From NCBI GenBank assembly GCA_011037195.1, contig JAAEAF010000618.1, positions 124,001 to 188,000 on the forward strand: a stretch of DNA of 64,000 bases, read 5' to 3'. Numbering within the stretch: the stretch's first letter is position 1; each line of letters opens with the position of its first letter. This stretch comes from Triatoma infestans (Eukaryota; Arthropoda; Insecta; Hemiptera; Reduviidae). The position numbers were made by a program, and so were the translations under genes. The notes beneath the pieces are model-generated. The model had not been told where the DNA came from, ran no database searches, and saw only the letters and a program-made list of their open reading frames with translations. Below, piece after piece: positions 14,461-62,984 of the stretch.

Positions 14461-14571
14461 TGAAAACATTTCTTAAAGTAGTATTCAAATCGTCGGGCCT
14501 TAAAATTACAATGAGATGTTTGTACGGCAATGGCCAGAGGAGTTTTTAAAGAAAACAAAATTTTCTTCGTT

Positions 14572-14610
14572 GCTCTACGTTTCGGGTACCAGGTGCCCTT
14601 CTTCAGTAGC
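14572..14610 (-). ncRNA. Hammerhead ribozyme motif, left arm
   Basis: Read on the minus strand: CTGAAGA, then a GGG..CCC stem II hairpin, then GAAA, CGTA and GAGC. Stem I is weakened because the 5' strand is GCTA instead of GCTC. Stem III is only two base pairs (AC/GT). Confidence 0.65.
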
Positions 14611-14663
14611 TTTCCTTCGTGCTTTCTACAGGAGAAACGTTCATTCCCCTCCTACCCTAAAGA

Positions 14664-14704
14664 GCTCCTGAAGAAGGGCACCAATGGTAGCCGAAACGTA
14701 GAGC
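14664..14704 (+). ncRNA. Hammerhead ribozyme motif, right arm, full core
   Basis: Stem I is GCTC (14664-14667) with GAGC (14701-14704). The core is CTGAAGA (14668-14674), then stem II GGGCACC/GGTAGCC with a short loop, then GAAA (14693-14696) and CGTA with the cleavage position after A14700. All invariant core bases are present. Stem III is a loopless two-base-pair ACGT, as in short-stem hammerheads thought to work as dimers. Confidence 0.8.
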
Positions 14705-15079
14705 AACAAAGAAAATTTCTTTCTTTAAAAACTCCACTGGTCATTGCCGTACCAACACCTCACTGAAAACATTTTTTTTTGCGTTACTTGAAAGATGCAC
14801 AACATCTAAGGTCCTTCGCACCTTATGCCTTACCTCTGATGTACATTATACTAATTGGGTTAAACTACTAGTTACCTAACAAGAAACCTAACGATAACTG
14901 GCCTAACATATATTAAATCGAACCTTTATTGTTTCTAAAATATTGAACCTCTATTATCCCCATATTGAACCTATATTGTCACTAAAAAACACCAAGTTAT
15001 ACCAAGAATTATTACTAAAGTATTAAAAATATTGAAATGATTGAAGTTTTGCAAATTAAAGGGATATGTTTAAATATAG

Positions 15080-15250
15080 GATTTTATTCGTCGTACATGC
15101 TTTTTTTTGTTGTTTCGGATTCTCAACCATCTTCAGAGTAAGGCTACCAAGTTCGTGTTATGCTTATTGATCATTATTGTTATCTTTATTGAATGAGAAT
15201 CCGAAACACGCCAAAAACAACAAAAATAAGCACGCCACGATGGATAAAAT
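15080..15250. mobile_element. Foldback element, degraded PLE derivative
   Basis: Inverted arms: left about 15084-15127 (TTTTATTCGTCG, then TTGTTGTTTCGGATTCTCA) and right about 15192-15250 (TGAGAATCCGAAACACGCC, then CACGATGGATAAAATA). The outer part resembles the ends of the foldback at 20176-20467 (TATTTTATCCGTCGTAGCATG). The minus strand of the left arm keeps CTGAAGA, a GG..CC hairpin and GAAAC, but the cleavage triplet is lost. No clear target duplication was found. Confidence 0.55.
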
Positions 15251-15849
15251 AAGATGTTATCCAGCATTACGAACCAATCCATTCAATATGCTTAAATTTG
15301 CAGGAACGCACTAAAATAAGAACCAAATTAAGAAGAAAACAAAGAAAAAACTAATACATGAATGAAGATATACAAAGCAAATTCGATACAATAAGTATAT
15401 CTACATATAATGTGTACAGTAACAGTTAAAATGTCATTCATTTCTTAAGAGCCAGTTAAGTCACGTATATATTTAGTATTGCCATAAATACTGATACAAA
15501 AGTTCAGCCTAGTACTACAAAGCTTTTTTTTGCATTAGCCATTACTTTATGACTATATTACAAAGGTTATATTCTACATATCGTTATCTAGTCTTCATAC
15601 CTTATTAGTAAAAGTATAAACGGTAGTCGGTATGCATTTTTTACTCATTTCATTAACATGGAGCGGGGTGAAAAAGAAAACCGTATTGCCACATAGCTCT
15701 TCACAAGGTAGGCAAACCAGCTTCTCAGAATTTGGAAGCACCATCCTCTGGGTATTAGCAATGTGTTCGTTTATCGTACAATTAACAGATAAGCGAGACC
15801 ATGACCTTCCCGTTCCGGACCCGACTATCTGCTTACAGTTCGTATAGAA
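15251..15849. other. AT-rich DNA with no recognised gene
   Basis: A 104-codon minus frame at 15595-15909 has no recognised domain and overlaps the start of the transposase remnant on the other strand. I treat it as chance. Confidence 0.4.
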
Positions 15850-16590
15850 AACGCGATTAAAGCTGTGGCGGCCAGGATCAGAAGACCTGTTAGGACAAAA
15901 AAAAATCATATCGTGAGGTGGGCATCTCAGAAAGATTTATGTCCAGACTGATTAGAAGCGACCTGGGTTAGTGGTTAATGGAGAATCGTAGGGCACACGC
16001 CTAAACCTAGTTTAAAGCAAATTAGACATGATAGATCTAAAGTTCTGTTGCAGCGTTACGCACAGGATCAAAGGCAATTCTGTTTACTGACGAAAAAGTT
16101 TTTAGCAATGTGGAAAAATTTAACCACCAAAATGATAGGATATTATGTGCGCACAGCTAGAGATATGCACAGAAAGTGATTGACAGAGAACATCATTATC
16201 GGAGTTCCTTATGGTTTGGTGTGGATTGAGCTATCAGGGGACAGCAAAAATCAATGTTTGTGGAGAAGGCGTTAGAATTTGTGCGAAGAATTACCAAGAG
16301 GATATTTTAGAACTCTCGTTATAAAACCTCTAAATCAAAGCCTTATTTCAAACAATCATTGGATCTTTCACAAAATTCAGCACGTGGCTCACAAGATTCC
16401 ACCAAGGGTGAGTGAAAATTGAATGTTCGTGACTTTATTATTGCTGAAAATTGATACTCCGGAACCGCTTCAATCCCCTTGATCAAGTTTGAAAAGAGTT
16501 TGATGACATTCCGGTTTGAAAAGAGTCTTTAGTACGGACAGCTTGCAATTTACCATTGAAAATCCACATTCCCTAGAACTTTACAGAAAA
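15850..16590 (+). pseudogene. Tc1/mariner-like transposase remnant
   Basis: Translating across several frames gives REVGISERFMSRLIRSDLGL (helix-turn-helix end, near 15920-15975), HDRSKVLLQRYAQDQRQ, then FTDEKVFSNVEKFNHQNDR (16076-16130), the first catalytic Asp region of this widespread insect transposase type. This is followed by SLWFGVD, FVRRITKRIF and LDLSQNSARGS, where the second Asp region (normally QDSAPAH-like) is eroded. The remnant fades near 16560-16590. Stops and frameshifts are frequent, so it is an old copy. No terminal inverted repeats were found. The subfamily (DD37-type or other) cannot be settled here. Confidence 0.7.
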
Positions 16591-16649
16591 CGATTTTCCT
16601 TAAAATATTTTGTAGAATGAAGTACATTCAGACAAATTGCAATTTCGGT

Positions 16650-16835
16650 TGACAGATTTTGACTGAAAGTGTTGATCATGTCGTATCCTAGGTGGTACCT
16701 AAACGGAATATCAAATATGAACTTCTTGTGATTCTTCGTTCTTGAAATATATTGCACATCCACACAGGGAGGACATGCGGTAAAAATAATTTTTTTATTG
16801 TATTCTGGGCCTTCAGAATCTCTTACGGCAGAAAG
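16650..16835 (+). repeat. Family A dispersed repeat, 3' fragment
   Basis: GGTACCTAAACGGAATATCAA, then CACATCCACACAGG (eroded CA tract), then a TTCTGGGCCTTCAGAATC end block. It begins right after the transposase remnant fades. Confidence 0.6.
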
Positions 16836-18540
16836 AGACAGTAAAGAATTACTAGTTCAGGAAACCACATGACTAAGTTATGCAAGGCTCAAACCATTCG
16901 ACCAGCCCTTTCTTTTCTTTATCGATCTGATGAAGTGCTTCGTGATATTCTTGGAAGAAACAATATGTTGGACACCTAGTTCTTTGTATTATGAAGAAGT
17001 ACTTCAACAGTGACCTGTTTAAAAAAGAATAGGTTGCTGAATATTGCAAAGGAAGGAAGGGTTGATCTCCCAGGTGAAAGGAGAGTTATCTACTTGAGCT
17101 ATACTCCCACACTCATACAAACAGTACATAAGGAGGTGTATTATAGGACGTGGTGAACATAAAGGGAACAGTTGAAAGAGATAATGCCGGGGTAGCTGTG
17201 TGTGTATGAGGCAAAAGTGGTCCTCTATTAGGTGATGTCGTAAAGAGTAACTCCAGGGCTTAGCTAGAGGGGCACTTTTGGAAAAGACGTACCTACTTAC
17301 TGCTGGAAGAAGAGTGTTTCCTGGTTGAAGAAAAGAAGAGTACGGTAGGAAGCAATCTCATTACAAGGCCGCCAGCTACACATGTCCCGCCATGACTCTC
17401 CCCTCGCACTCTCTCTCTCTCTTTCGTCCCTGTTCCCAGTGATATAGTCTTCTAAACTGCTTAACTCCATTAGGAAAATCTACCCTACATATAACCACTA
17501 GACACATTTACTGTTTATGTAGCCTTCTTGATATAAGGTTATATATCCATAATTTTTAGACCGTTTCTGCTCTGGCAAAGTGCCACGAGAAAAAACACAC
17601 ATGCACACACACCCATTTTATTTTTTATTTTTATTTTTATTTATTTAAACATTAGGTTGATATTTTTGTCATAATGGCAAGAAAGAAAAGGAAACACTCC
17701 CATTTTGGCTTTCTCATCTTCCAACTGACAAATTATCTCAAACCGGGATTTTAACCTATAGAATGCGTTTCTTTTCAGAGCCTACTTGAAAATAAGAGAA
17801 ACTAAAAATCTGACATGAAAAAAAATCAACCTGGTTTCACTTAGTGCAATTCTTACAGACCTGATTGAAAAACATTTCTTAGACTGAATTTTAGTTTCCT
17901 TAAACTCCCACTAGATTTTGCGGTTCCTGTGGATGGATTTTGTCCGAAACTTGCGATTGCAATATTTCCTCTCATTAAAGAAGTCCAAGTATAAAACTAT
18001 CCTCTTTTTACGACAATCATTATGTAGACAACATTAATTGAGACCATATGTTACATAAGAACAATTAAAATAAAAAAAATAAAAAACTATGAATTATGAA
18101 GAACATAATCTAAATTACATAATAATTACACGTAAGTTATAAAGCTATAGGGACGTTGATTAACTCTCATAATGAGAGCACCCAAGATAGAGTATGATCT
18201 AACTGTATTTGGCCTAAATGGCCGTCTCCCTCATCATTTCTTATGCGTTTGTGTGTGTGTGTCTGAATATTAGTAGTTGCTAATTAGAGCTCATTAAGAT
18301 AGGACCCTCATACTTACGTCATCTTGTCAGAACTGAATTAAAAGGGGGGGACATTCCTTGTGAAATTAGTTGGGATAATTTGTGCACATATTACAAAATG
18401 CTGAATAGAACTATTAATGAAACTCATTGACAGTAATTCTTTAAAAGTCTCTGCTACTGATTGAAATGTAAGAAGTATTAATAATAAAATAAATGGTCTA
18501 CGAAACGTCCAGTAAAAACTGGAATTTTTATTCAATATTT
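16836..18540. other. No gene recognised
   Basis: Mixed composition. It contains a CT-rich run (17405-17426), a short CA-rich stretch (17599-17612) and a GT run (18251-18262). The short frames have no domain. Nothing here could be tied to another repeat in the window. Confidence 0.4.
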
Positions 18541-19169
18541 AATTGCTTTTAAAATTATATAGGTGGTAGAATCGTGCAATATACCGAAATTGCACTAAAG
18601 TCAATTCTAGGGTCACCTAGAAAACTTCAAATCATTTTTCCCCAGAAAAATATACGTATCTAATAAAAAGTAGACCTCTGTAGTCTGCTCAGTATGTCAA
18701 ACATGAAGAAAATTTGAACTATTTTCGAGAAAGCCTCGGAAAACAGGAAAAAAAGGAACATTAAGTAAAGACGCACTTCCGGTTAACAGATTTTCATTAA
18801 ATTCGGAAATTAAGTAGAACATTTAAATAACTATAGATGGTTGAAGCTGTTGATATTAATAATGGCATTTTGAGGTAAGCTTGTGGACCAGATTCCCAAA
18901 AAATACTCAAATTAATCTTCCCAGAAAATATATGTAGATAGTGTGCCAAATATAAAGAAAATTGTTAAAACCTTAGTAAAAAAAAATAAATGCATAAAAA
19001 TAAAAAAATTGGTGTGTAACACTCGCATACTGCGATTTAAAATATAATTGTTACTGAGAATGAAAACTGAGAAAAATAAAAACCGAAATCTTCATGTCGG
19101 TCGTGATGATATTATTTGAATAAAAATAAAGTATTAGCTTTCAGCAATTTTATTTTAGAGATAATTTAT

Positions 19170-19252
<83 letters not shown>

Positions 19253-20162: not shown

Positions 20163-20175
20163 CAGAAATTATTGG

Positions 20176-20467
20176 ATCCGGTATTTTATCCGTCGTAGCA
20201 TGCATATTGTGTTTGTCTCCTGACCGTTTCCGGATTTTTATCCATCCGTCAGAGCAAATTCCCAGTTCGTGGGAGAGTTCATCAACGCAATGGTTCTGTA
20301 GACTCACACTTGTTGTGTTCTTCTACATAACCATTTTCGTTGAAAGTGAACTCACTCTACACACGAACTTGGTGAGTTGCTCTACGATGATGAATACTCC
20401 GAAACCGGTCAGGAACAAAACCAATATGCATGCTACGACGGATAAAATACCGGACCCAGCCACATTT
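20176..20467. mobile_element. Foldback PLE derivative with degraded hammerheads
   Basis: About 290 bp, bounded by a perfect 13-bp duplication CAGAAATTATTGG (20163-20175 and 20468-20480). Left arm from about 20180 reads GGTATTTTATCCGTCGTAGC; the right arm ends near 20457 with its complement. Each arm has a hammerhead-like block: on the plus strand GATGA, then GAAACCGGTC near 20395-20420, and on the minus strand a GGAT/ATCC hairpin then GAAACGGTC. Both have lost core bases. The target is a family A repeat, whose ATTGGGATCGT end block resumes to the right. Confidence 0.75.
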
Positions 20468-20575
20468 CAGAAATTATTGGGATCGTATAAACTTTTAGAA
20501 ATGGAATTTTCACCGGAAATACATATTTTGATCTCACCGGAGTTCGGAAAAAGGTTTGGTTTTGACTTAAAGAAC
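20468..20575 (-). repeat. Family A dispersed repeat, end fragment
   Basis: Minus orientation: ATTGGGATCGTATAAAC, TTTTCACCGGAAATACATAT, TTCGGAAAAAGGTTTGG, matching the 3' end of other copies. It is the target of the foldback element to its left. Confidence 0.6.
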
Positions 20576-20759: not shown

Positions 20760-21062
20760 TTTGTTGTGGTGGTTAGTTCCGCAGAGCTGGAAAGCATCAG
20801 AGACATTTTCCGTGGTAGCCGCCTGCTTCATTTTGTGTCAATCGCGGTTTCAGGCGGTTCGCCCATCCTTCATGATGCGTTTTTCAGACAGTTACAACAC
20901 AAGACTTTGCACAGAGCCATTTAGTTTACGCACTCCACACTTGCTCTGTGCAAGTCTGTGTTGTCAAACTGTCTGAAAAACGCATCCTGAAGATGGGCGA
21001 ACGCCCGAATCCAGTCGATGACCACAAAGTGAAGCAGGCTACACGGAAAATGTCTCTGATGG
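20760..21062. mobile_element. Foldback PLE derivative, subfamily shared with 53195 and 61763
   Basis: About 300 bp with an 11-bp duplication GAGATGAGGAA (20749-20759 and 21063-21073). The left end carries the tail TTGTGGTGGTTAGTTCCGCAG. Arms of about 130 bp run from about 20795 (AGAGACATTTTCCGTGGTAG) and to about 21060. The right arm holds CATC (20983-20986), CTGAAGA (20987-20993), a GGGC/GCCC hairpin, GAAT in place of GAAA, CCAGTC and GATG (21017-21020): a hammerhead with one core mutation. The left arm copy is more degraded. Confidence 0.78.
20983..21020 (+). ncRNA. Hammerhead ribozyme motif, one core base changed
   Basis: Stem I CATC/GATG and stem II GGGC/GCCC are perfect. The core reads CTGAAGA and GAAT instead of GAAA, which should break the first pair of stem III and probably abolishes activity. 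Confidence 0.6.
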
Positions 21063-21705
21063 GAGATGAGGAACTCCGTCAGACGAGAACATGGTTGCTT
21101 CCCGTTCAAAGAAAAGAGAGATAAAAGAAATGAAGGAAAAAATATCTTGCAGTGCTATTAAGTCGAGACTACAGGAATGATAAAGGCTACTGCAGCAAAA
21201 GTAAGCAAAGGTTGGAAAGTTATTGGAGCTCCAAACTCTCTCTTCTGCCAAACAGAAGTTACCATGGAAACTAAAAAGAAGCTCTATTATCATTCCTTAC
21301 TGAAACGGGTGGACTTCTATGGGTGGAAGTGAAACATGGGAATTCTAAAATGAATAAGGATATGCTATTGGCCGTCGAGCTGAATTTCTGGCGAAGGAGC
21401 TGTGAAATATCTCGCTCATATCAGAAATAAGAAATTCGAAAGAGAGCGGACGTTAGGAGACAATGTCCTCCCGGAGATAGAATTATGATGGCTGAGGTAC
21501 TCTGGCCACGTAAAAATAATGAAAGAAGACCTTTGGCCCAAGAGTTTCTTGGGCTACCTAGTCTGAGGAAATACGAAAAGCATGCGTTCTCATAAGGGGT
21601 GGTTACAAAATGTGCAGGAGGCAATGGTAGGAAGAGTTCTTGCGGCCAAGAATTGTCTCAATCTAGGAGAGTGGGCATATGACCGGGATATGACCAATAT
21701 GTAAG

Positions 21706-22089: not shown

Positions 22090-23550
22090 ATTATTTATCA
22101 AACAGTGAATAAAGTTAAACGCTTCTTTCCCTTAAGTTCAGGTACTGACTCTCGCGGTCCTCGTATGACAACTGAACGAGAGTGTGAGAATACTTTACTC
22201 ATGTTTGAATATTAAATTTTTTAATATGCCCTTAGATGTCGGGAGATGAATACTTTATGTTGCTTTATTGCAAAACAGAGCAGATTATAGAGAGAGGGAG
22301 TATTTAGCTTGAATTAAAGTCCATTCTCTGTTTTTGCATTTTTCCGTATTCGTGTAAGTTAAGAACCAATGTAAAGCAAAAAATTCTGGTGTGAAACACT
22401 CATACAACTTTCACTTACTCCTGTTCTCAAAATTATAATTGACAAATGTTATAGTTTGTGTACCAAATTTAACAAAATTCGTCGAAAATTGAAAAAACAG
22501 TTCAGCAAAAGCGCACTTCCGGTTTACCAATTTTCTTGAAACTTGAAATTTTGGCCATCTATTTATTTCTAATTAATTTTGTTTGGATGATCAAATTGTA
22601 TAATTAACTATGATAGCAATTTAGAGGAAGCGGTAACGCCACCCCTCCCCTTAAGTGCCCTTAAATGAATTTTCTCAGAGAAATGCTAAATAAAAGATGT
22701 AGATCATTGCGTGTTTGGTTTCAATGTTTCAAGAAAATCGTCGGAGCCATTTTTGAGAAAATCGCAAAAACGTAAAAAAACCAACTAGTAAAGTGGTACT
22801 TCCGGCTGAGGAATTTTGACAAATAACGTAGGGTCAGATCCCATGGTGATACCTAAACGGAATATCAAGTTTCAACTTTCTACGGTTTTCCGTTTTTGAG
22901 CTATGCTGTTCATATACATACCACACACATCACACACAAGACCATTTTGCTGAAAACCACTTTTTTTTGGACTCCGGATCTCAAAACGGATATTTCTGGT
23001 GAACTTCGATATCGAAAATTTGACCAAAACGATTACAATCCTTCCTCTTACTAGGAGTAAGAGAAAGTAAACATTCAACACGTGAACGAAGTATTTTTTC
23101 CTGCATCCCACGTAATTATTAAATCAAAATTAGTGAAGTTCTACTTTATTACAGAATGATAAAAAGTAAAAGTAGCCACTGTTTTATTACACTAGTGTAA
23201 TAAAGTAATATTATTCAATTTTAACTTGCTCGACATCTAGCAGCAACAAGATCAAACAAATCCCAGATTCAGCGGATTTGAGGTTATACCAAACGGTGCA
23301 GGTTATAGAGAGAGGGAGTATTTGACCTGAATTAAAATACATTCTCAGTATTTGCCCCTTTTCACATTTCTTTTATTCATACAGATTAAGAACCAATTTA
23401 ATATGGCTGCATAAAAAATTTAATATTCAACATGTGAGCGAAGTATTTTTACACTTTCATTCAGTTGCCATACGAGCGCAGAGTGTGTCAATACCTGAAC
23501 TCGAATGTAAAAAGCATTATTTTACTCACTGTTTGTTAAAAAACCTAGTC
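22090..23550. mobile_element. Long-inverted-repeat element, contains a family A copy
   Basis: The left arm (about 22097-22225: AAACAGTGAATAAAG, AGTTCAGGTACTGAC, CTCGTATGACAACTGAA, GTTTGAATATTAAATTTTTT) is matched in reverse at about 23425-23545 (AAAAAATTTAATATTCAAC, TTCAGTTGCCATACGAG, GTCAATACCTGAACTCG, TTTTACTCACTGTTTG). A direct internal repeat TTATAGAGAGAGGGAGTATTT occurs at about 22284 and 23302. No protein was recognised. A family A copy lies inside at 22385-23068. The arms total about 130 bp and are clearly diverged, so the element is old. Class unknown: MITE-like or foldback. Confidence 0.65.
22385..23068 (+). repeat. Family A dispersed repeat, near-complete copy
   Basis: Left end AATTCTGGTGTGAAACACTC then ACTTTCACTTACTCC. 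The middle has two CACTTCCGG blocks (about 22513 and 22797). ATACCTAAACGGAATATCAAG and a CA tract follow. The right end is TTCCTCTTACTAGGAGTAAG then AGAAAGT. At about 680 bp this is the best short reference copy in the window. Confidence 0.85.
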
Positions 23551-51136: not shown

Positions 51137-51235
51137 ATACTACTTATTGTTAATGAAGATTCTCGACCGATCTAATAACAACTAAAGGAGATCTCGAGGA
51201 GCGGTCAATAAAATGTACACTTTTTTTAAATCTTT

Positions 51236-51272
51236 TCCAACGTTTCGACAAATTTATTGTCTTCTTCAGGGA
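51236..51272 (-). ncRNA. Hammerhead ribozyme motif, left arm of the PLE
   Basis: Minus strand: TCC, CTGAAGA, a five-base-pair stem II GACAA/TTGTC with loop TAAAT, GAAA, CGTT, then GGA pairing with TCC. The core is complete. This copy is in sense with the coding strand. Confidence 0.8.
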
Positions 51273-51616
51273 TCTGTACAACAATCATACAAAAAGGAAT
51301 AATAATAATAGTAATCACCATAATCTAAATATAGATAATAATAATAAAGAAATAGTTTGGGACAATTATTAAATATAAGACAAATACAAAACAAAACAAA
51401 CAAAAAAATTTTTTAAAACTACTTACAAAGATAAAAAAAATGTTAATCGGTGTTGGATATATTTTCCATAAAACAAACTAAACTCAAATTATGTAATAAA
51501 CAGAGAGAGTTACTAACTATATGAGCTACATCATCAGAAATGAAGGTATGTGGTAGATGAAGAGGTTATTAGAAGGTAGTATTCGGGAGTGGGGGATGAA
51601 AAGGAAAAACCAAGTC

Positions 51617-52606
51617 TTATGATGGATGGGAATTTCCAGGACGGGGGTTTAGGATACTGTTGTAGATGATTGACAAGTTGTTTGTGTCCGTCCTATAATT
51701 GATTGAAGTTGTGTGTTTTTTAATGTTTATCATTTCTAAAATGTTTCTTTTTTTTCTTGTTAGTGTTGGTCGCAAGAATTGTAGGGTTGTCATAGTCAAA
51801 GTTGTGGTTAAGTTCAATATGATGTCTTGTGAGGGCGGTAGTCGTGTCATTGTATTTTTTAACTTTGCAATCGTATTCGTGTTGGTATAGTCTTTTTTTT
51901 AAATACTGTGAAGTCTTCCAATGTATGTGGCTGGGCATTGTTTACAGTCAATTTTGTAAATTAAATCAGAACGTTGAGTAATAGGAGTCGAATCTGTAAG
52001 TCTAGTAAACATCTTTTGACAAGTATTGGAACTTCTGTGTGCCACAGAGATGTTGTAAGTCCGAAAGATTTTTGCAATTTTTTCGGATAGATTTTTAATG
52101 TAAGGAATGGAGATATAAGTGCAAGGTGATTGTGAGGAATGTGTAGGAGACTGTAATCTAGTTATGTTGGTGTTATTGGAGGTAATGTGATTAGTGACTT
52201 CGGTAAGGATATTTTTTATAATATGGGTGGGATAGCTATTATTTTTAAATATGGTGGTAAGTAATAGTTTGTTTTGGTCATGGAAAATGGGATGACTAAG
52301 AGATAATACACGCCTTGTAAAGGAACGGATGAAGTTAATTTTTTGAAGATAAGGATGGTGAGAATGAAAGTGTAGAAAGCGGTCAGATCGAATGGACTTC
52401 ATGTACCAATTAGTCACAAGAGAGCCATCGTTAGAACGGCTAATGGTCATATCAAGAAAATTGATTTTATTATCATTTTCAATTTCATAAGTAAACTGAA
52501 GTCTCGGATGGAAGGAATTGAAGATATTAAGGATTGTAGAAATCTGAGTGTTAGGAACAGCAGTTAGACAATCGTCAACATATTTGAATTCCTTTCCATC
52601 CCCCAC
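51617..52606 (-). pseudogene. PLE reverse transcriptase C-terminus plus GIY-YIG endonuclease
   Basis: Frame 52606-51899 (235 codons) opens MGDGKEFKYVDDCLTAV with the catalytic YVDD at residues 9-12. It continues through INFLDMTISRSNDGS and SIRSDRFLHFHSHHPYLQK, the PLE-RT thumb and linker. It reaches SDLIYKIDCKQCPATYIG, the GIY-YIG start with its CxxC-like pair. Frame shifts near 51900 lead to RLYQHEYDCKVKKYNDTT, ALTRHHIELNHNFDYDN, and then, in 51850-51617, KKHTTSINYRTDTNNLSI. The GIY-YIG nuclease cuts the target for insertion. The first RT motifs are absent. The first frame begins inside the right inverted arm. Confidence 0.85.
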
Positions 52607-52924
52607 TCCCGAATACTACCTTCTAATAACCTCTTCACCTACCACATACCTTCATTTCTGATGATGTAGCTCATACAGTTAGTAACTCTCTCTGTTTATT
52701 ACACAATTTGAGTTTAGTTTGTTTTATGGAAAATATATCCAACACCGATTAACATTTTTTTTATCTTTGTAAGTAGTTTTAAAAAAAATTTTTTTGTTTG
52801 TTTTGTTTTGTATTTGTCTTCTATTTAATAATTGTCCCAAACTATTTCTTTATTATTATTATCTATATTTAGATTATGGTGATTACTATTATTATTTTTC
52901 TTTTTTGTTTGATTGTTGTACAGA

Positions 52925-52961
52925 TCCCTGAAGAAGACAATAAATTTGTCGAAACGTTGGA
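52925..52961 (+). ncRNA. Hammerhead ribozyme motif, right arm of the PLE
   Basis: Stem I TCC (52925-52927) with GGA (52959-52961). Core CTGAAGA (52928-52934). Stem II GACAA (52936-52940) with TTGTC (52946-52950). GAAA (52951-52954). CGTT with cleavage expected after 52958. Stem III is the loopless ACGT. It is identical to the left-arm copy by eye, and antisense to the coding region. Confidence 0.8.
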
Positions 52962-53194
52962 AAAGATTTAAAAAAAGTGTACATTTTATTGACCGCTCCT
53001 CGAGATCTCCTTTAGTTGATACTACTTATTATTTTTCATATTTTATTAAAGTGTTGGAGTATTTTCGCCAGCCTAGTATAATTTTTTTTTTTTAATTGAA
53101 ATTTGCGATTCCAATATTAGTTGCAACAAATAAATGTGTTAGTTAATTCAATAGCCGGAAGTTTAGATTGGAGAAGCCATCCATAGAACAAGTG

Positions 53195-53360
53195 TAAAAC
53201 TGAATTAGCTCTGTGCAAGTCTGTGTTATTATACTAATTTGACAAAAACATCCTGATGATTGGCGAACACCCGAAACCGGTCGTTGACCACAAAAAGAAG
53301 CAGGCTATCACGGAAAATATCTCTGATGCTTTCAAGTTCTGCAGGACCAACCACAACAAT
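53195..53360 (+). mobile_element. Single-arm PLE derivative with hammerhead remnant
   Basis: Matches the right arm of the 20760 and 61763 foldbacks: GCTCTGTGCAAGTCTGTGTT, then ACATCCTGATGATTGGCGAA, CACCCGAAACCGGTCGTTG, AAGAAGCAGGCTATCACGG. It ends in the tail TTCTGCAGGACCAACCACAAC. The hammerhead at 53249-53286 keeps CTGATGA, GAAA and CCGGTC, but stems I and II each carry mismatches. No inverted partner arm is seen nearby. Confidence 0.7.
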
Positions 53361-55423
53361 TAGTATCGTAAACTTCATTTAGTGATACTTTATTTCAGGT
53401 TTGTAATTCTATTCTTTTAAAAGATCTTAACGTACAGTCAAACTGAAACCGCAAAGAATAGTAATCGGAAGTTCTTTGTTTCTGTCACTTTGCCTTTAAT
53501 CCTGTCCAATTCAAAGTATTTCCGATTCAGAGTCAGATAACGCATCATGTCAGCAATGACGTGGCAAGTCTACATAACCAAGTCTAGAGCTTCAACCACC
53601 TCATATGTCTTTAGGATTTTCTTCAAGCACATTATAAAGCAAATTTATTTAACAAAATGTTTTTCTACTTCGTTATCATTAGCTTCTGAGCAAACCTCTC
53701 ACAACGACCATATCTAACGAATGGGAATAAGTTATATTGGCTATAAGACTCAAGGCTGGTCCTGGGACTCCTTCCCAGATACAACCTATGCATCAGGCGC
53801 ATCCCCTGGTTGCGAATCGAGCGAATTCTAAATATAGCATTGGCTGCTTTATAAGAAGACAATATTTAGAACAAGCAACTGCAGACATAAGAGGAACATG
53901 AAGGTGTCGTATGAGGTAGGCTGTCCATTGATGTTGATTTCTATGAAATACCTCAGTAAACCAGTGCAGCTGTGCAAGGGTGTTGGTTTGGTGCAGTTAT
54001 TTTCAAGTAAGGCACTTGTGCAAGGTTGAAGGATTTCGCTAGCCTTAGTTAGCAGCCATTTATAGGAAAGAAAAGCCTGACAGTAAAATCTCATGACTTT
54101 CTAGCTTCGGGTGCTGGAGCTCTTTGTAGTAACTCGAACCTGATGATAAAGTCTCATACATCTGGATATGTTCCTGATTTAATTATTAGAATAGTTTAGC
54201 TTCCGGATTTTTCGTGATGCATTTCCAGATAGTTGGTGGATATTTCAGGATGGAAACCATTACCACTATAGACTTATAACATTAAATCGCCTAAGAAGAA
54301 ATTGGGGGTCCCAGTCTCCCCCACCAGTTTACTATTCTCTAACATTTTCTCGCCAAGTTTTGAGATCTGGAGTTTCTTCGTTAAAAATGCAAATTTCAAA
54401 TGCTAAACCTTATATATTATGATTATTAAATCCTGTTTTAATAGGTCGAAAGTTTGTGAATCAATTTTAATTATGTTCTTTCATTTTTATTTTATTAATG
54501 TTAAATGGTCCAATAATTCACCAAATAGATTATGATATATTATTAAATGAATGAACCGTAAAAACCATTATATTAAATTAACTGTAACACTCCTTTTTTT
54601 TGTTATAATACATTGTAGTTAAAAGTTTATTAGCTTTGGGTTTATGAAGAGATATTGTGAAGTGAGGATAAATACTAGTAATAAAGTGTGCGATCTAATC
54701 ATAAATAATAGTGGATCAATAGGGTCAAGTGTCAGGGGGAGGGCAGATGGTCAAAGAAGTAGCCATGGTCTTCCAATAAAGGGTCAAACACTATTCCATA
54801 GTTACGTACTGCTATACTGTTTGGGAAGATTGGGGGTTCGGGGGCGATATAAAGCAGAGGTTAGGAGAAAAACCATTCAAAAATGATATAGCTGGCCATA
54901 TCTGGATCCATAACGACCGATAAATGCCGTAAAAATATACGACCCTGATGAAATAGTAGAAGTGTAAGTAAGGTAATAATCGATTCTATTTCTACTCTCT
55001 CTTTTATTTTATTTTATTTTTTGTTATCTACTCTTACATTCTTGTTTAGAGATCGGCAGTGCTAGTAGGAAATGACAAGGTCTGTATATATAGTGGACCA
55101 GTGTTAATAGTGTTATGTAATAACGTGAGTAGAATGAAGGAGAGAGTATCAGTGCGGCAGTGTAACCCAAATGAGAGTACTCTACTATGTGTGGGTATCG
55201 TGTATATGTGGGTATGTGAATATACATGTTCAGCTGATAAATGTATAAACACAGGGCAGCCACTGACTAGTGCTTCTCTGTTCTCCTACCTTCCCCATTT
55301 TCTCAACGCATTAAACAACTTAATAGAGTTTAAGGTTTACTTTTTATTATGTTTTATGATGGCTGTAATTTTTTTCCTACTTTTATTTTTGACTTTGTTT
55401 GAGAACCTTATATGTATATAATG
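53361..55423. other. No recognised gene
   Basis: Minus frames at 53665-53862 and 53849-54094 overlap and could be one shifted frame of about 145 codons, including SYKAANAIFRIRSIRNQGMR and TKPTPLHSCTGLLRYF. I do not recognise it. A plus frame at 55059-55421 ends in a hydrophobic segment and is also unrecognised. Confidence 0.35.
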
Positions 55424-55425
55424 TA

Positions 55426-56725
55426 CGAGGTGTGTTCAAAAAATAACGGAAATTTTCATTTTTTTTTGAAAGAATATTATTTATTCGTCTACATCAATGT
55501 TATCCTCTTCAAAATAATCCCCATTAGATATTATACACTTATGTCATTGCTTCTTCCAATCCCCAAAACACTTATGGAATTCGATCTTTAGGATAGCTTT
55601 GAGCTCTTTCAGCGATGCACTTTTAATCTCATCTATGCTTGAAAAACGACGGCCCTTCAAGGTTCTGTTTTTTTTTGGGGGGGGGGAACAGAAAAAGTCA
55701 CATGGGGCCATGTCTGGCGAATATGGGGGCTGGGGCATCATTACAGTGTTGTTTTTTGCTAAAAATTCACGAACAAGAACGATGTGTGAACAGGTGTATT
55801 ATCGTGATGCAAAAGCCATGAATTGTTTTGCCAAAAAATTCGAGCGTTTTCTTCGGACTGCTTCGCGCAAACGGCGTTGAACTTGCAAAAAGTATTGCTT
55901 ATTGATCGCCTGACTTTGTGGCAAGAACTCATGGTGCACTATGCCATTAAAATCGAAGAACACAGTGAGCATAATCTTCGCAATTTAACCAAACTTGTCG
56001 AGCTTTTTTTCGGTCTTGGCGATCGAGAATGCCTCCGCTGGGACGATTGAGCCTTAGTTTTGATATCATAACCATAAACGCATGTTTCATCACCTGTTAT
56101 GACACGCTTCAATAGTTCTTCATCGTTGTTGACATGATTTAGCGATTCCTGTGCAACTTCTATTTGCCGCTGTTTTGCTGCAACAAGTTTCATACCCAAA
56201 ACAGATGAAAAAATTGCATGGAATAAGCCAATTGATATGCCAGCATCTTCAGCAACTTCTCTAATTGTGATTAGGCGAGCGTTCATAATCATTTCTTTCA
56301 CTTTTTTCACGTTTCCATCGGTTGTTGATGTGCTAGGACGACCCGTACGCTCGTCGTCTTCAACATCTTCATGGTCAGCTTGAAAAGAGCTTATACCATT
56401 CGTAAACCCTTGTTTTACTCCTAGTAGATTCACCAAAAGCAATATTTAATTTCTAAAATTTTTGTTGCACTTTATTCCATTTTTATAGCAAAATTTAATG
56501 CCAATTCTCTGATCCATGATTTATACAAATAAAAAATCGCTGACTGTAACAAAACACGTGTTATTCTTTTAACAGCTGACAAGAGACTAAACATTCAATA
56601 TAGCTCAAAATGTATAGATACATTTTAAGACATGTATACCAACACAACAACGAAAAAATCGTACCAATCGGAATAATATAACCCGCGAAATTTCAAAATT
56701 TCCGTTACTTTTTGAACACATCTCG
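55426..56725 (-). mobile_element. Full-length mariner DNA transposon
   Basis: Exactly 1300 bp between TA target sites (55424-55425 and 56726-56727). The terminal inverted repeats are CGAGGTGTGTTCAAAAAATA, ACGGAAATTTTC on the left and, reading inward on the other strand, CGAGATGTGTTCAAAAAGTA, ACGGAAATTTTG on the right. The size, TA duplication and transposase identify a mariner. The inverted repeats differ at a few positions and the gene is broken, so the copy is inactive. Confidence 0.95.
55544..56442 (-). pseudogene. Mariner transposase (DD34D type), frameshifted
   Basis: The transposase would cut at the inverted repeats and insert at TA. The main frame 56442-55939 reads SSFQADHEDVEDDERTGRPS and KVKEMIMNARLITIREVAED (helix-turn-helix), then RVITGDETCVYGYDIKTKAQ with the first catalytic Asp. 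A shift near 56000 moves to frames with IVHHEF-like second Asp surroundings (about 55900-55940). The frame 55741-55544 reads MMPQPPYSPDMAPCDFF with the third Asp, then KGRRFSSIDEIKSASLKE and FHKCFGDWKKQ. TW/CW changes, such as DETC instead of DETW, and two or more shifts make it non-functional. Confidence 0.9.
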
Positions 56726-56727
56726 TA

Positions 56728-57950
56728 TAAACCATACATATATCTGTACGATAATTTACCTAGTAAAATCTTAAAAAAGAAAAGAAAAGAAAAAAAACAT
56801 TTGTTTTTACCTCTTTTGTAATCGCACCTCGTAACAACGATTAAATCATTTTTATTAATGAATCAAAACTAATTAGGAAGTTGTGTGTAAGTCTGTAACG
56901 ATAATTTCAGTTTATTTAATTTTTGCACTATAAAAAGCGAAGGACATAAGGACTAAGAAATTCATGTCAATTAAGCTTCCATATTTTTTAGAATTTTATA
57001 TAGTTTTACAAAGGAGCGTTTCGGTCCTAATTAAGGACCTAATTAATTTTTGAGTAAACATTATTAAATGATGTAACATTCAATGAAATGAAATTGGTTT
57101 ATTAATAAATTAACTAATCTATGGTTCATTAATAAATCTTACCAGCCTGTTTTGTAGTTTAGCAATAAATTTATCCCACAGGTTTATATTTGCTTTAAAT
57201 TTAAATTGACATGTCCACGATACTCAATTATTAAACTATAAACACGCAAGTGTCAAGAATTAGTTAACCAAATTTATAAACCAATATTAAATCATTAATA
57301 GTAAATAATTTTAGTACTTTTAACTCAAAATTATATTTTCAATAGGCTGAAGACGTTCTCATTTTTTGGACAAAACGTTACCGTATAACATAATCAAATT
57401 AAAAAAAAAAAAAAATCAGAGGAGCTTGTTTGACACCAATTTTTCGGTCCTTCTTGTTGCTTCTCACATTACAAAATATAGTATAATAACAATTGAACAT
57501 AATTCCAAGAAATATAGCTCATAACTAAATCACTAAACTGCAGTTCGTAGGCGGAAGTCGATGATTGGGGAATTTAGAATTTTATTGCTGTATATGTGAG
57601 TGAGAGAGCTATAAAGTATGTTTTGTTCGCGTTGGTAGTGTAACGGAATTAACACAGCAATTTAGCCATAACCATAGTTCCAATAACAGCTGCTTGAACG
57701 CCCCACCAATGTGCCGCTAAAATTACTTCAACTACCGCTAACTCCTCATTAATGTCCATTTCAATGTATTGGCGAACGAGCTATAACTCTGACAGCAAAG
57801 TATACCCTATAAGATTTCTCGAAAAAAACCACCAAGAGGTAGAACAAACCCGGGAAGCTTGAGAGAACTGGCCGGATCAAGTTTGACGAATTAACAATTC
57901 TCAAGATTATGTAAAATACATCAAGTTAGCTAAACTAGCTAATCAACCGT
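56728..57950. other. AT-rich DNA with no recognised gene
   Basis: No domain-bearing ORF. A poly-A run lies at 57402-57415. Confidence 0.45.
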
Positions 57951-59056: not shown

Positions 59057-59265
59057 TAAGGCGCGTCAACTTCTATGGTCAGTAACGCCCGGAGCCTTCT
59101 CAGTGCACTGCCTACATTCGGTGAGTGATCTCTTGTTGCAAACAACACTGTCCATCACAGGACAGTGAGGCTAAAGAGCCTCCGAGAAAGAAAATATCTA
59201 AAGCGGCACCCTTGGACTTGGACCCGGCACCTACAGTATGCTAACCACTTAGTTATTCCTTGCTA
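59057..59265 (-). mobile_element. tRNA-derived SINE, near full length
   Basis: Minus strand: A-box-like TAACTAAGTGGTTAGC, B box GGGTCCAAGTCC, then GGAGGCTC, ACAGTGTTGTTTGC, GTGCACTGAGAAGGCTCCGG and TTGACGCGCCTTA. This is the same order as the SINE at 27110-27350, with moderate divergence. It is older than that copy; no certain target duplication. Confidence 0.8.
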
Positions 59266-60397
59266 AGTAATTTTGTTTAATTATCAGGGTACCTAAGAAA
59301 ATCAGTTTAATCAGTGGCTTGCCAAATCCTGCACTTCCTCTCTTTTCTATTGATTAACTGCAGAATCAATCACAGCCTCAGTCACTGTAAAAATAAAATT
59401 TACTCTTTGATATAGCTGTAATGATAGATGGAAATGATGTTGTTGGCGATGAAAAATTCAATACTTTTACTTAAACAGTGTTGCATTTTGACATACTTTA
59501 TAAGGAGAAAGAATAAAATGAGATATAGTGACATTCAGTCACCTCTACGGGTCATATATTGTAATGTGTACATCTTTGGGCGAATTAGTAAATGTAAATT
59601 GTATCGAAATATATTCTTGGTATATATTTTATGATTGTAAAGTAAGGAATTTTTCCGATGTATATATTTATAAATTTGGGTGTTTTGAAGGTTGGAAGGC
59701 ACAAAAGAAACAGTTAATTGAGTTAGAGATAACTGACCTACCCCTATCACTACATTTATTTAGGACAAAGGGAATTTCCCTCTTCTCACTTTCTCCGAAG
59801 TGGAGGTAGAATATACTTAGGGTTCAAAATTTATACCGTAAAAGGAATGAAATCCGTGATTAGAATAAGCCATGTACAGTATTGAGTGGTGGAAGTGCCC
59901 CAAGAAACCCAACCTTCTTCAAGTCAGTAAATATGTAAAATATGTAAGTTTATAAAAAGCAATTTCTCCTAAATGACAAGACACTTAATATGTTATTATA
60001 TCACAATCTTGTATTTATTTATTTTTGACATACATTGGTTATTTTAATTATATATTTTGGATCTATATACTTAGATGTTTTTCCATCCTCTCCAACTTCT
60101 GTATAAACACAGACCTCACGAGATCCCTTTTGAGAAGATCCATATATAAATTACAATAATTAATTAACATAATATAACTAAGTTAATTTACCCCCCCCCC
60201 CCCAATACAATCGTATTACAATGTATATTGTGCGAATGTTGGGAATGACAGTGTAAGTGTTGGCTTGTGTTATTGGTTCGGATTCCTGCAATGATACCTA
60301 GGATCTCAGAAGAAGTGGCTCATTCAGTTTACTCTACACCAAAAAAAAGGACCCTACAGATACATGTGACAAGATTTATGGAACTTTTTGTATCGGA
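59266..60397. other. No recognised gene
   Basis: A C13 run lies at 60191-60203. Positions 60223-60332 repeat the short element at 24265-24376. Frames at 59428-59809 lack a domain. Confidence 0.4.
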
Positions 60398-60895
60398 TGT
60401 TGCATTAACATTTTTCATAACTTGGGATTGCTAGATAAGTGTGGAAAGAATATTTTTGACGCAGGAGTGAGCCTCGAGACCAGGCTTGATTTGTCTGATT
60501 GGAATAACTCGATAGGTAGAAAATTGAAAATCTGGATTATGATTCATAGTTCCACAAAGCATAACGATAGTAATTTAATTGTTATAGTGAATAACTTCTT
60601 AATTTTTTTAATTCCATCTGTATCCAATTTAATAAAATCCCGTTATCAAAGATTCTATAACTCCCTGTCCCATCGTTATAATCCTTTAGTTCAACAATTT
60701 GCTAAACCAACCTTACCCGATAATCCATCCCGACGTCTGAAACGTCAGTGGCCCCGTGACCTTTTGAATTAACTTCAACGCCATGAAGTAATACCACTGG
60801 GTATTTTTGTCACACGTAATTCATATCATGTAAACATTCACCACATTTTTTTATTGTATCTATTGTACAGCTGCAAATAAATTATTGAAGAAAAA
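60398..60895 (+). pseudogene. Jockey-like ORF2 C-terminal fragment with 3' UTR and poly-A
   Basis: The frame 60422-60772 ends with SNLIKSRYQRFYNSLSHRYN, PLVQQF and PSRRLKRQWPRDLLN, the pattern (IkkrykkfyerLshH.NpLv ... RRLKR.wP.DLl) of Jockey-type ORF2 C-termini. The 3' UTR follows and ends AAATAAATTATTGAAGAAAA with an A run (about 60892). It is a severely 5'-truncated copy, as often produced by aborted reverse transcription. The start upstream of 60550 is uncertain. Confidence 0.7.
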
Positions 60896-61750
60896 AAATT
60901 AATAGAGAGATTCAATATATTGCAAAGTTTGCTATAACAACTTAATTTTTTAATTTAAGTTACTAAATACTCATTGATATAAAAATTAATATATATTTAT
61001 TGGAACTATACTTAAAATATACTTATTCCATTCACCATTAAGAGAAATTATTTAATTAATTATTTTTCTTTGTTTTGAAAAAATAAAAACTCATTTCTCA
61101 TTTAAAAAAAGAAGTTAAGAGGAAAAAAACTTGGCAGTATACTGAACTTGTTAATAAAGTAATTCTAAAGAAGAGCAGTAGCCGGTTCTACCGTCGTAAA
61201 ACTTCTTAACTTATAAAAAGAAATAGGAACATCAGAAATTCAGTTACAGCTGGCAAGATGGATGATTCAACCCTTTGACCATTTCAACTTCTTTAATAGC
61301 TTTTAAAAAATTACTCTTATTTAACTAATGTATTCTACTATTGTTTTATATTTATATTAATCTTTTATACATTATTTTATTATTATTTTATATATATATT
61401 TAACCAAAATTAGCTTTCTCCTTAATCGTTTAATTTCTTGAAGTAGGCGGAAGTTTTGTTTCTGTAGCCAATTAAAGAAATGAAGTTTTTAATTGAAATG
61501 AATATAATGAATTTCTCTAAATATGAAAGTTTAGAAATGTAGCAGGGCATAAATGATTAAGATATTCCGACTACGTTAATATTAACTCCTTGCAGTGGAA
61601 TAATATGATCTCGAATAATGATGGGCAAAACAACTCTGCTCTTGGATTTATTGATTTTGAATCAGCTGCTGGATCTCAAAAACTCGTTCAACAGAGTTCA
61701 TTCACGAATTTTTTACCTTTTTGTGTTAAAATGACCTTTAAATTCGGTTC
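60896..61750. other. AT-rich DNA with no recognised gene
   Basis: No ORF of note. A family of TAT/ATT-rich runs is present at 61320-61400. Confidence 0.4.
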
Positions 61751-61820
61751 AAATATCGTTTAGTGGTTGTGGTTGGTTCCGCAGAGATATTTTCCGTGAT
61801 AGCCTGCTTATTTTTGTGGT

Positions 61821-61858
61821 CATCGACCCGTTTCGGGCGTTCGCCTATCATTAGGATG
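61821..61858 (-). ncRNA. Hammerhead motif, left arm, core mutated
   Basis: Minus strand: CATC, CTAATGA (G to A in the core), a GGC/GCC stem II, GAAA, CGGGTC, GATG. Stem I is intact. The core change should inactivate it. Confidence 0.6.
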
Positions 61859-62672
61859 CGTTTGTCAAACAGCGTGATAACATAGATTTGCAAGAACAAA
61901 TTTAGTTTATACACTGACTGGTCTTTAAATGTTTTTGTTAAATGCCTAACTAGGTCAAAAGAGGGAGACGGGATGGTATGATAACGAAAGGATGATTTGA
62001 TAACGAAATGTTAATGCGGAATGTACGTTACATTAAGCTTGGTTAACACACTTACATAATTTTTTCAATGATAAATTTATAAAAAGTCTGTACTTAAGCT
62101 AGTTTAGACTTGTTATATTCAGGCATGTAAAGAACCCATATTTAGATATACATGCGTACGTGGATGGCGTGTGTGAATTATGAAAGATGAAATGCGAAAT
62201 AAGTCAGTGTCATCAAACATTCTGCTTATATAGGTTGATTGTTGATTGATTGATTGTTTATTTGTTTAAGAAAATATTATTAATTTATCTATACTATCTT
62301 ACGAACATTCAACTCGTAATTTGTCATTTCTGTCAGTGACTATTTCACAGCAGCCCACGGTTGATACAGTGTTATTTCGCACCGTTATAAATAAATAAAT
62401 ATAATAGTGAGATAATATGGATAATTAATTGTAAGGTAGTTTCCCTCAAACAACGTAGTTTAAGATATAGACCCCCACATGTTGGATATTTCCATTATTA
62501 AAGAAAAAAGTGCCCTTTAAAGACCCAAACTAGTGTTTTTTTCCCACTCAGGTACCACCCACTTCCCCGCCTTGACCTAATTAGGCATTTAAGAAAAACA
62601 TTTAAAGATCAGTCAGTATATAAACTAAATTTGCTCTGTGCAAATCTATGTTACCACACTGTTTGACAAACG

Positions 62673-62710
62673 CATCCTGATGATGGGCAAACGCCCGAAA
62701 CCCGTCGATG
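62673..62710 (+). ncRNA. Hammerhead ribozyme motif, right arm, full core
   Basis: Stem I CATC (62673-62676) with GATG (62707-62710). CTGATGA (62677-62683). Stem II GGGC (62685-62688) with GCCC (62693-62696), loop AAAC. GAAA (62697-62700). CCCGTC with cleavage expected after C62706. Stem III is two pairs with a C/C mismatch, so activity as a monomer is unlikely. Confidence 0.82.
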
Positions 62711-62984
62711 ACCACAAAAAGAAGCAGGCTATCACGGAAAATATCTCTGAAAATATCGTTTAATTCACTAAATGTTTTAATTTGTAATTAACTTTTTCAT
62801 CAGTTTGTAACAAAATTAGATTAATGACTATTATAAAAACACAAACTATTCATTATCAATAATATTTTCTATTGTTATTAATATTTTATAAGGCTCATAT
62901 TTTTTACTCGAATTATATGAATAATATTACACCACATATCAAACATAGGATTTAAACTTTTTGTTATTTTTGTTTATTTATGTG

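What the first reader, a model, noticed from the sequence alone, without database searches (positions are those of the whole stretch)
14472..62750. Compact foldback elements carrying hammerhead ribozymes, related to a PLE
Five elements (14472-14763, 20176-20467, 20760-21062, 51149-53018, 61763-62750) share one plan: a short single-copy tail, two inverted arms each with a hammerhead motif or its remnant, and 11-13-bp target duplications. Only the 51149 element has RT/GIY-YIG coding; the others are noncoding and as short as about 290 bp. Established: Penelope-like elements carry hammerheads with very short stem III in their terminal repeats. Inference: the small ones are non-autonomous derivatives moved by PLE proteins, and the inverted arrangement means any full transcript is a long hairpin in which a ribozyme faces its own complement. 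I am not aware of such minimal inverted-arm forms being a described class.
Basis: partly seen in the sequence, partly recalled or inferred. Interest (0 to 1): 0.88.

Follow-up and report, generated by a model that had tools for sequence, protein, structure and literature searches.

The report
Penelope-style ribozyme hairpin elements, built fresh
Arms of a short non-coding element family that bears a hammerhead-ribozyme motif occur over 20,000 times in this eukaryotic genome, often as mirror-image pairs about 300 bases long with a tail at one end, and each pair was likely built afresh by a Penelope-type reverse transcriptase copying one short RNA from both cut ends of its target.

Summary
All five elements have inverted arms, a one-sided tail, 11-13-bp target duplications and a hammerhead motif or remnant. 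Only the 51149 element codes (RT, start of GIY-YIG). The non-coding families A (14472), B (20176) and C/D (20760, 61763) recur genome-wide; C has 23,229 arms.

Copies suggest how they form. Listed exact arms within 1 kb of each other are head-to-head in 29 of 29 pairs. Centre junctions are mostly private. Which arm is longer is unrelated to which has the tail (29 versus 37, one equal). Most subfamily variants in B sit on both arms or neither. So the foldback is probably not what replicates: each insertion looks newly made from a single-arm RNA copied from both cut strands, with two start points 24-35 nt apart, as in vitro work on a Penelope-like element suggests (PMC11167929).

Inverted pseudo-LTRs, one-sided tails and hammerheads are established for these elements (PMC3846280, PMC11167929). 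New here are minimal, abundant non-coding forms and copy-level evidence on how inverted arms arise. No autonomous partner with the same tail was found, and there is no RNA evidence.

The parts
14472..14763 (.). Element A: non-coding foldback, 292 bp, tail at left
   Evidence: 11-bp TSD TGAAAACATTT
14461..14471 (.). A target duplication, left copy (right copy 14764-14774)
14472..14505 (-). A tail (single copy, inner edge approximate)
   Evidence: one-sided part of the foldback
14572..14610 (-). A left-arm hammerhead, decayed
   Evidence: model R1 E 5.7e-10; fails strict descriptor
14664..14704 (+). A right-arm hammerhead, one stem II pair lost
   Evidence: model R1 E 1.6e-14; fails strict descriptor
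20176..20467 (.). Element B: non-coding foldback, 292 bp, tail at right (internally deleted)
   Evidence: 13-bp TSD CAGAAATTATTGG
20163..20175 (.). B target duplication, left copy (right copy 20468-20480)
20378..20414 (+). B right-arm hammerhead remnant
   Evidence: by eye; family core CUGACGA..GAA-ACCGGU-C; not found by R1
20760..21062 (.). Element C: non-coding foldback, 303 bp, tail at left
   Evidence: 11-bp TSD GAGATGAGGAA
20749..20759 (.). C target duplication, left copy (right copy 21063-21073)
20760..20794 (-). C tail (single copy, about 35 nt)
   Evidence: reverse-strand matches begin at about query 29-38
20838..20877 (-). C left-arm hammerhead remnant
   Evidence: by eye; not found by R1
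20983..21020 (+). C right-arm hammerhead, GAA-ACC mutated
   Evidence: model R1 E 0.056; 28 C-family arms elsewhere pass the descriptor
51149..53018 (.). Element E: 5'-truncated Penelope-like element as two head-to-head cDNAs
   Evidence: 12-bp TSD ATACTACTTATT
51137..51148 (.). E target duplication, left copy (right copy 53019-53030)
51149..51172 (-). E tail
   Evidence: left arm runs to 51149; right arm matches only to the base facing 51173
51173..51606 (-). E left arm (pseudo-LTR)
51236..51272 (-). E left-arm hammerhead, passes strict descriptor
51617..52588 (-). E coding remnant: RT from YVDD onward, then start of GIY-YIG; reading frame changes near 51900
   Evidence: (motifs by eye)
52588..52589 (.). 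E junction of the two cDNAs
   Evidence: right arm starts 52589; genome relatives align from residue 10, that is 52588
52589..53018 (+). E right arm, second shorter cDNA, no tail
52925..52961 (+). E right-arm hammerhead, passes strict descriptor
61763..62750 (.). Element D: C-family foldback with a long right cDNA, tail at left
   Evidence: 12-bp TSD AAATATCGTTTA
61751..61762 (.). D target duplication, left copy (right copy 62751-62762)
61959..62571 (+). D interior, collinear with the right arm in another copy (L092)
62673..62710 (+). D right-arm hammerhead, stem III palindrome broken
   Evidence: model R1 E 0.043
61821..61858 (-). D left-arm hammerhead remnant
   Evidence: by eye; not found by R1
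15074..15281 (.). Decayed B-like foldback with tail at right
53198..53360 (+). Solo C arm with tail, starting at the family's common 5' end; no TSD seen by eye

Best explanation
These are short non-coding elements in the insertion format of Penelope-like elements (PLEs), and each foldback was likely made new at its insertion by a PLE-type reverse transcriptase that copied a short single-arm RNA from both cut strands of the target. The inferred steps are as follows. A single-arm RNA carries, from 5' to 3', a leader, a minimal hammerhead, a stretch of arm (about 45 nt in C) and a tail. A PLE enzyme supplied in trans makes a staggered cut (giving the target duplication). One target strand primes at the outer end of the tail, the other at its inner end. 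Both cDNAs run toward the RNA 5' end, one usually stops early, and the two are joined head-to-head. Shown by sequence: head-to-head arms, the one-sided tail, target duplications, mostly private junctions, no link between tail side and longer arm, variants shared by both arms, and the hammerhead motif. Inferred: PLE enzymes as the agent, RNA as intermediate, and the joining step.
For: Head-to-head format: among the first 100 listed exact places of each search, all neighbours within 1 kb are head-to-head (14 of 14, 2 of 2, 13 of 13, recounted in 87). Adjacent E arms among the 40 places are 9 head-to-head, 4 direct (2,977-2,982 bp apart) and 0 tail-to-tail.

Tail: by a fixed threshold 72 of 75 foldbacks have one tail, 3 pass at both ends (L063 clearly; L030 and L049 doubtful), none lacks it. 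Genome-wide 13,029 C tails to 23,229 C arms, ratio 0.56.

Target duplications of 8 bp or more in 54 of 75, against 37 of 1,824 mismatched flank pairs.

Junctions: 22 of 22 (A), 23 of 24 (B), 17 of 21 (C) distinct. Tail arm longer in 29, other arm in 37, equal in 1; with a difference of 5 nt or more, 23 and 36. In C one arm reaches a common 5' end in 21 of 21 (B 15 of 24, A 6 of 22).

Shared source: no column has a side-specific commonest letter, and true arm pairs beat all 2,000 re-pairings in each family. At four B sites the second allele is on both arms 20 times, on one arm 8 times (6.6 both expected); three sites give 19 to 2.

Hammerhead: descriptor 43 hits against 0 in each of 20 shuffles; a model from other families finds 30 C arms at E below 0.01.

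Published match: a purified PLE protein extends both target strands and starts at two sites whose interval is the tail (PMC11167929, passages).
Against: No RNA data.

The 75 foldbacks are the best-scoring copies and so favour two-armed forms. In flanks alone, 16 of 27 A/B/C arms not cut by a locus edge are paired head-to-head and 11 are not; one L063 cluster has two same-strand neighbours (my tally).

The PAc paper saw no difference in start site between strands. Free choice would give many two-tailed or tail-less foldbacks; one tail is nearly the rule here, so some unexplained asymmetry is needed.

At the fourth B site the allele is on both arms once and on one arm six times; in A the sum is 11 both and 17 one-sided (3.8 both expected). 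In A, within-element divergence (0.116) is not below that among tail-side arms (0.111), and the common 5' end is weak (6 of 22).

Two of five covariation measures do not beat shuffles (92 and 288 of 500), and the sequences were picked with motifs. B has a stem I mismatch and is not found by the model.
Confidence: 0.68

Rival explanations
1. The foldback replicates as a unit (a foldback or MITE-like DNA transposon, or a SINE-like hairpin RNA), and its centre is later trimmed by palindrome instability.
For: Length and plan are uniform in the best-scoring copies; palindromes are known to lose their centres (recalled).
Against: The two ends differ (tail on one side), so there are no matched terminal inverted repeats. 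Junctions are nearly all private. Three of four B subfamily sites show the allele on both arms or neither. No side-specific column exists. In C one arm reaches the common 5' end while the other is 5-20 nt short, which random central deletion would rarely give.
Confidence: 0.11
2. Self-priming: one cDNA or antisense RNA folds back at its end and is copied, as proposed for rotifer Penelope inverted repeats (PMC3846280, passages).
For: Explains head-to-head arms and alleles shared by both arms; published as a proposal.
Against: The second arm would be copied from the first, so a tail could not sit on the copy of a tail-less arm, and the template arm should be the longer at the centre. The tail sits on the shorter arm in 37 of 67 and on the longer in 29 of 67.
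Confidence: 0.15
3. They are metazoan retrozymes: hammerhead-processed circular RNAs copied into tandem repeats.
For: Small size, non-coding, type I hammerhead, target duplications (PMC7229834, passages).
Against: No direct neighbour within 1 kb among the listed exact arms. The arm contains an uncut hammerhead, and its 5' end is not the predicted cleavage site.
Confidence: 0.05

Closest known systems
Penelope-like elements with inverted pseudo-LTRs and tail (rotifer Pen2a_Av, PMC3846280; lizard PAc, PMC11167929; passages read of both)
   Same: Inverted pLTR next to direct pLTRs, 31-bp (rotifer) or 30-40-bp (Drosophila, cited) tail at one end, TSDs of 8-10 bp in the rotifer cases read, hammerhead at the PAc pLTR-ORF junction, unrelated sequence moved between pLTRs in trans
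   Different: A, B and C have no coding sequence, are about 300 bp and form large families (C over 20,000 arms); no pLTR-ORF-pLTR tandem was seen in them
Minimal type I hammerheads of PLEs, reported to cleave as dimers (Cervera and de la Pena 2014; Lunse et al. 2017; neither held, known here from citing passages in PMC7761336)
   Same: Very short, palindromic stem III (ACGU or ACCGGU), type I layout, PLE association
   Different: Here in minimal foldbacks; one extra nucleotide between A9 and stem II in all 16 sequences; activity untested
Metazoan retrozymes (PMC7229834, passages)
   Same: Non-autonomous, small, non-coding, type I hammerhead, TSD
   Different: Retrozymes are direct tandem repeats; these are head-to-head pairs or solos
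Foldback DNA transposons and MITEs (recalled)
   Same: Long inverted repeats around a short centre
   Different: One end carries an extra tail; TSD length varies; junctions are private to copies

Membership tests
Penelope-like elements (PLE) | Reverse transcriptase ORF | tested here: met
   Element E only: 8 of 15 relatives carry RVT_1 precomputed; P0012 passes the RVT_1 cut-off, P0002 is just below it (29.0 of 29.6); genome copies have open frames up to 834 aa. The E fragment itself has no Pfam hit.
Penelope-like elements (PLE) | GIY-YIG endonuclease | tested here: inconclusive
   Sub-cutoff match in P0002 (19.3 of 22.6 bits); motif in E by eye only
Penelope-like elements (PLE) | Coding capacity in A, B, C, D themselves | tested here: not met
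   D has no PLE-like ORF, and tblastn with E and 15 relatives finds nothing in A-D; they are at most non-autonomous forms
Penelope-like elements (PLE) | pLTR-type arms, inverted and/or direct | tested here: met
   Inverted: 29 of 29 close listed pairs; E arms 9 inverted and 4 direct adjacent pairs
Penelope-like elements (PLE) | Short tail at one end | tested here: met
   72 of 75 foldbacks one tail; ratio 0.56 genome-wide
Penelope-like elements (PLE) | Variable target duplications | tested here: met
   54 of 75 at 8 bp or more, lengths 8-14; control 37 of 1,824
Penelope-like elements (PLE) | Same tail as an autonomous PLE in the genome | tested here: inconclusive
   E tail unlike A, B, C; other PLE lineages could not be read
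Minimal type I hammerhead | Core CUGANGA..GAA..H with paired stems I and II | tested here: met
   Met for A, C, E; B has the core but a stem I mismatch and is not found by the model
Hammerhead_1 (Rfam RF00163) | Score against the Rfam model | tested here: not met
   Not listed at E up to 10 in A-D or in intact C and E arms; genome search 0, but its control rang nowhere
Minimal type I hammerhead | Self-cleavage | not testable with these tools
   Needs transcription assay
Metazoan retrozyme | Direct tandem repeats of the unit | tested here: not met
   No direct neighbour within 1 kb among the listed exact arms
Metazoan retrozyme | Circular RNA | not testable with these tools
   No RNA data
DNA transposon or MITE | Matching terminal inverted repeats at both ends | tested here: not met
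   Tail present at one end only in 72 of 75
SINE | Pol III promoter and 3' end shared with a LINE | not tested
   No promoter test made

The most novel reading that the evidence does not exclude
The conserved job of the Penelope hammerhead is not cleavage but pairing. Its self-complementary stem III (ACGU or ACCGGU) would hold two sister transcripts of one source locus together, so that a dimeric PLE enzyme copies one RNA into each cut strand of the target. This would give a foldback whose arms carry the same alleles yet start and stop independently. The foldback would then be the normal primary product of Penelope-type insertion, and the non-coding 300-bp families its most stripped-down form.
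Probability: 0.15. Interest if true: 0.88.

Novelty: new variant of a known kind. Interest (0 to 1): 0.65.

Why it matters
How inverted pseudo-LTRs of Penelope-like elements arise is unsettled: self-priming was proposed in 2013 (PMC3846280), and both-strand extension was seen in vitro in 2024 (PMC11167929). Over 20,000 short arms, with a marker (the tail) on about half of them, act as a record of single insertion events. They let the two ideas be told apart from sequence alone, and here they favour two independent starts. They also suggest that what the RNA needs fits in about 170 nt (hammerhead, arm, tail), which would make a very small in vitro substrate. The role of the hammerhead in these retroelements is called unknown in a review (PMC7761336, passages).

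Tried and rejected
Rfam at gathering level on the window and at E up to 10 on A, B+C, D, an intact C arm and an E arm gave no hammerhead; the hits there are chance models. Rfam RF00163 against the genome also gave none, but its control rang in no genome.

Unit-replicating foldback, snap-back priming and retrozyme readings were tested and put aside (see rivals). Two RNAs drawn at random from the pool are unlikely given three of four B sites. E as mobiliser of A, B, C is not supported by the tails; B and C tails are related to each other (0 of 500 shuffles). Pfam, NCBIfam and PDB gave no usable hit to the E fragment; relatives identify it.

Rows dropped before counts. Of 30 loci each: A dropped L025, L026, L028; B dropped L043, L047, L048 (same place); C dropped L068 (same place) and L072, L073, L080, L081, L083, L084, L086, L087 (shared flanks), leaving 27, 27, 21. 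L022, L038 and L060 were found to be further duplicates and dropped, but are still in the counts (duplications; tails). In one search four A and one B copies lacked a usable anchor. One search covered 40 of 93 sources.

Full report
WHAT IS THERE. The five elements exist as described. Each is flanked by an 11-13-bp duplication and has two inverted arms and a tail at one end. The window lies in an unnamed assembly of 941 Mb; a U4 snRNA match at 9029-9170 marks it as eukaryotic.

FAMILIES. Searching the genome with A, B and C scored the 40 best of 2,343, 3,113 and 3,792 candidates and returned 80 matches each, the places appearing on both strands. C and D are one family. B and C are distantly related (about 72% identity over part of arm and tail; tails 0 of 500 shuffles). 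Counts with at most 2 mismatches: C 23,229 arms (35-mer) or 21,701 (42-mer reaching into the hammerhead); A 1,510; B 1,385; reversed-pattern controls 0. The A and B counts depend on the chosen 35-mer.

ELEMENT E. The minus strand of 51617-52615 holds RT from the YVDD motif to the start of GIY-YIG, read by eye. Pfam does not recognise the fragment. Fifteen relatives were found, 8 with RVT_1 precomputed. On rescan, P0012 passes the RVT_1 cut-off; P0002 falls just below it (29.0 of 29.6 bits) and has a sub-cutoff GIY-YIG match (19.3 of 22.6). Full-length genome relatives align from residue 10, which places the junction at 52588/52589, where the right arm begins. E therefore reads as two cDNAs of one RNA, about 1.44 kb and 0.43 kb, joined head-to-head. 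Among E arms (40 best places), adjacent pairs are 9 head-to-head, 4 direct at 2,977-2,982 bp and 0 tail-to-tail.

HAMMERHEADS. A strict descriptor gave 43 hits in 290,068 bases (71 sources): 11 in A arms, 28 in C arms, 3 in arms of the E profile, and one about 250 nt downstream of a PLE RT fragment in L055. Twenty shuffles gave none. The majority arms of A and C, made without any motif filter, carry it; that of B has the core but a G.G in stem I. A covariance model built from A, E and two E-like hammerheads was searched over the window and 39 B and C loci, 192,370 bases. It gave 36 matches at E below 0.01, all in arms, of which 30 are C arms not used to build it, mostly at E 0.0008. The first match outside any arm is at E 0.011. 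No B arm was found. In 16 picked sequences, paired cells (88.5% against 69.9%) and covariation score (0.736 against 0.356) beat 500 of 500 shuffles, but pairs changed on both sides (92 of 500) and further pair types (288 of 500) do not. Fifteen of the sixteen were picked by motif, so the constancy of core letters is partly by construction. Stem III is palindromic (ACGU in A and E, ACCGGU in B and C). Minimum-energy folds of A and E monomers show stems I and II with the core open; C and B monomers fold otherwise. In two-strand folds only E pairs the stem III palindrome between strands with stem II kept. Residue numbering is recalled.

HOW COPIES ARE MADE. I used 75 foldbacks (A 27, B 27, C 21) after dropping same-place and shared-flank copies. 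(1) By a fixed threshold 72 have one tail and 3 pass at both ends: L063 clearly, L030 and L049 doubtful. (2) Duplications of 8 bp or more: 17 of 27, 21 of 27, 16 of 21; mismatched flanks 37 of 1,824. (3) Arms: within-element divergence 0.116, 0.069, 0.045 against tail-to-other between elements 0.133, 0.087, 0.056; re-pairing arms at random never did as well in 2,000 trials per family; in A the tail-side arms among themselves are as close (0.111). (4) Subfamily alleles in B (both / tail only / other only): 6/0/0, 1/3/3, 4/1/0, 9/1/0; sum 20 both, 8 one-sided, 6.6 both expected. In A 11 both, 17 one-sided, 3.8 expected; C has one informative site. (5) Junctions: after dropping three further duplicates, 67 copies. 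Distinct junctions 22 of 22, 23 of 24, 17 of 21. Tail arm longer 29, other arm longer 37, equal 1 (binomial p 0.39); with a difference of 5 nt or more, 23 and 36. In C one arm reaches within 5 nt of a common 5' end in 21 of 21, with at most 13 unassigned bases at the centre; B 15 of 24; A 6 of 22. The reference ends were taken from the longest arms seen, so this count is partly by construction, but a solo C arm in the window starts at the same point. D and one C copy (L090) run further.

WHY THIS POINTS TO TWO STARTS. A unit-replicating foldback would hand down its junction and arm-specific changes. Snap-back copying could not put a tail on the copy of a tail-less arm, yet the tail is on the shorter arm in 37 of 67. 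Two starts, at the outer and inner edge of the tail, explain both. The purified lizard enzyme PAc extends both target strands and starts at two sites whose interval is the tail; it showed no difference in start site between strands, and hammerhead mutants inserted normally (PMC11167929, passages). The near-constant single tail seen here is not explained by free choice between two sites, so an asymmetry remains to be found. The rotifer study describes inverted pLTRs, a 31-bp tail on one of them, TSDs, transposition in trans of sequence between pLTRs, and proposes self-priming (PMC3846280, passages). Shared alleles further suggest that both cDNAs come from one RNA or from RNAs of one locus.

HOW COMMON ARE FOLDBACKS. 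The 75 are biased to two-armed copies. In the flanks of other elements, 34 A/B/C arms were found: 16 form 8 head-to-head pairs, 7 are cut by a locus edge and 11 are unpaired (my tally). Among the first 100 exact places listed in each, all 29 neighbours within 1 kb are head-to-head.

WHAT IS NOT SHOWN. The mobilising PLE, transcription, ribozyme activity, and the joining reaction. The PLE lineages at 66%, 55% and 42% identity to E could not be read.

NOVELTY. Nine searches of the paper library listed no paper that I recognised, from titles and abstract starts, as describing minimal non-coding inverted-arm PLE forms. I saw passages of seven papers. The two papers on PLE hammerheads most likely to touch on them are not held, nor is the 2021 PLE survey. 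Repbase entries were not searchable. I therefore file this as a new variant of a known kind.

Noticed in passing
window 9029-9170 (-): U4 spliceosomal RNA gene, 78.9 bits against a cut-off of 46.
   Followed up: no
window 55409-56742: Inverted arms of 55 nt about 1.2 kb apart, with broken ORFs on the minus strand that read like a mariner transposase (GDETCVYGYDIKTKAQSSQ, recalled motif); probably a decayed mariner-type DNA transposon.
   Followed up: partly
window 22118-23518: Inverted arms of 108 nt at 70% complementarity around 1.2 kb without a long ORF; unidentified.
   Followed up: partly
L092 1545-1605: A long D-family copy keeps arm and tail but lacks most of the hammerhead after CTGAAGAT; no inverted arm was found in the 2.3-kb locus.
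   Followed up: partly
L071, L072, L073, L080, L081, L083, L084, L086, L087: A C foldback with the same flanks in nine loci, near E-like arms; it looks like one insertion carried along by a larger repeat.
   Followed up: no
A1 alignment: All 16 hammerheads listed have one extra nucleotide between A9 and stem II (A in families A, E and the two E-like arms; T in B, C, D).
   Followed up: partly
L055 2323-3269 (-): Another PLE lineage: RT fragment followed by a strict-descriptor hammerhead.
   Followed up: partly
L007 2196-3112: A C foldback that seems to be inserted into another C element, a nested pair.
   Followed up: no
75 foldbacks: Exactly one tail per foldback is nearly the rule, which free choice between two start sites would not give; the cause of the asymmetry is unexplained.
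   Followed up: partly
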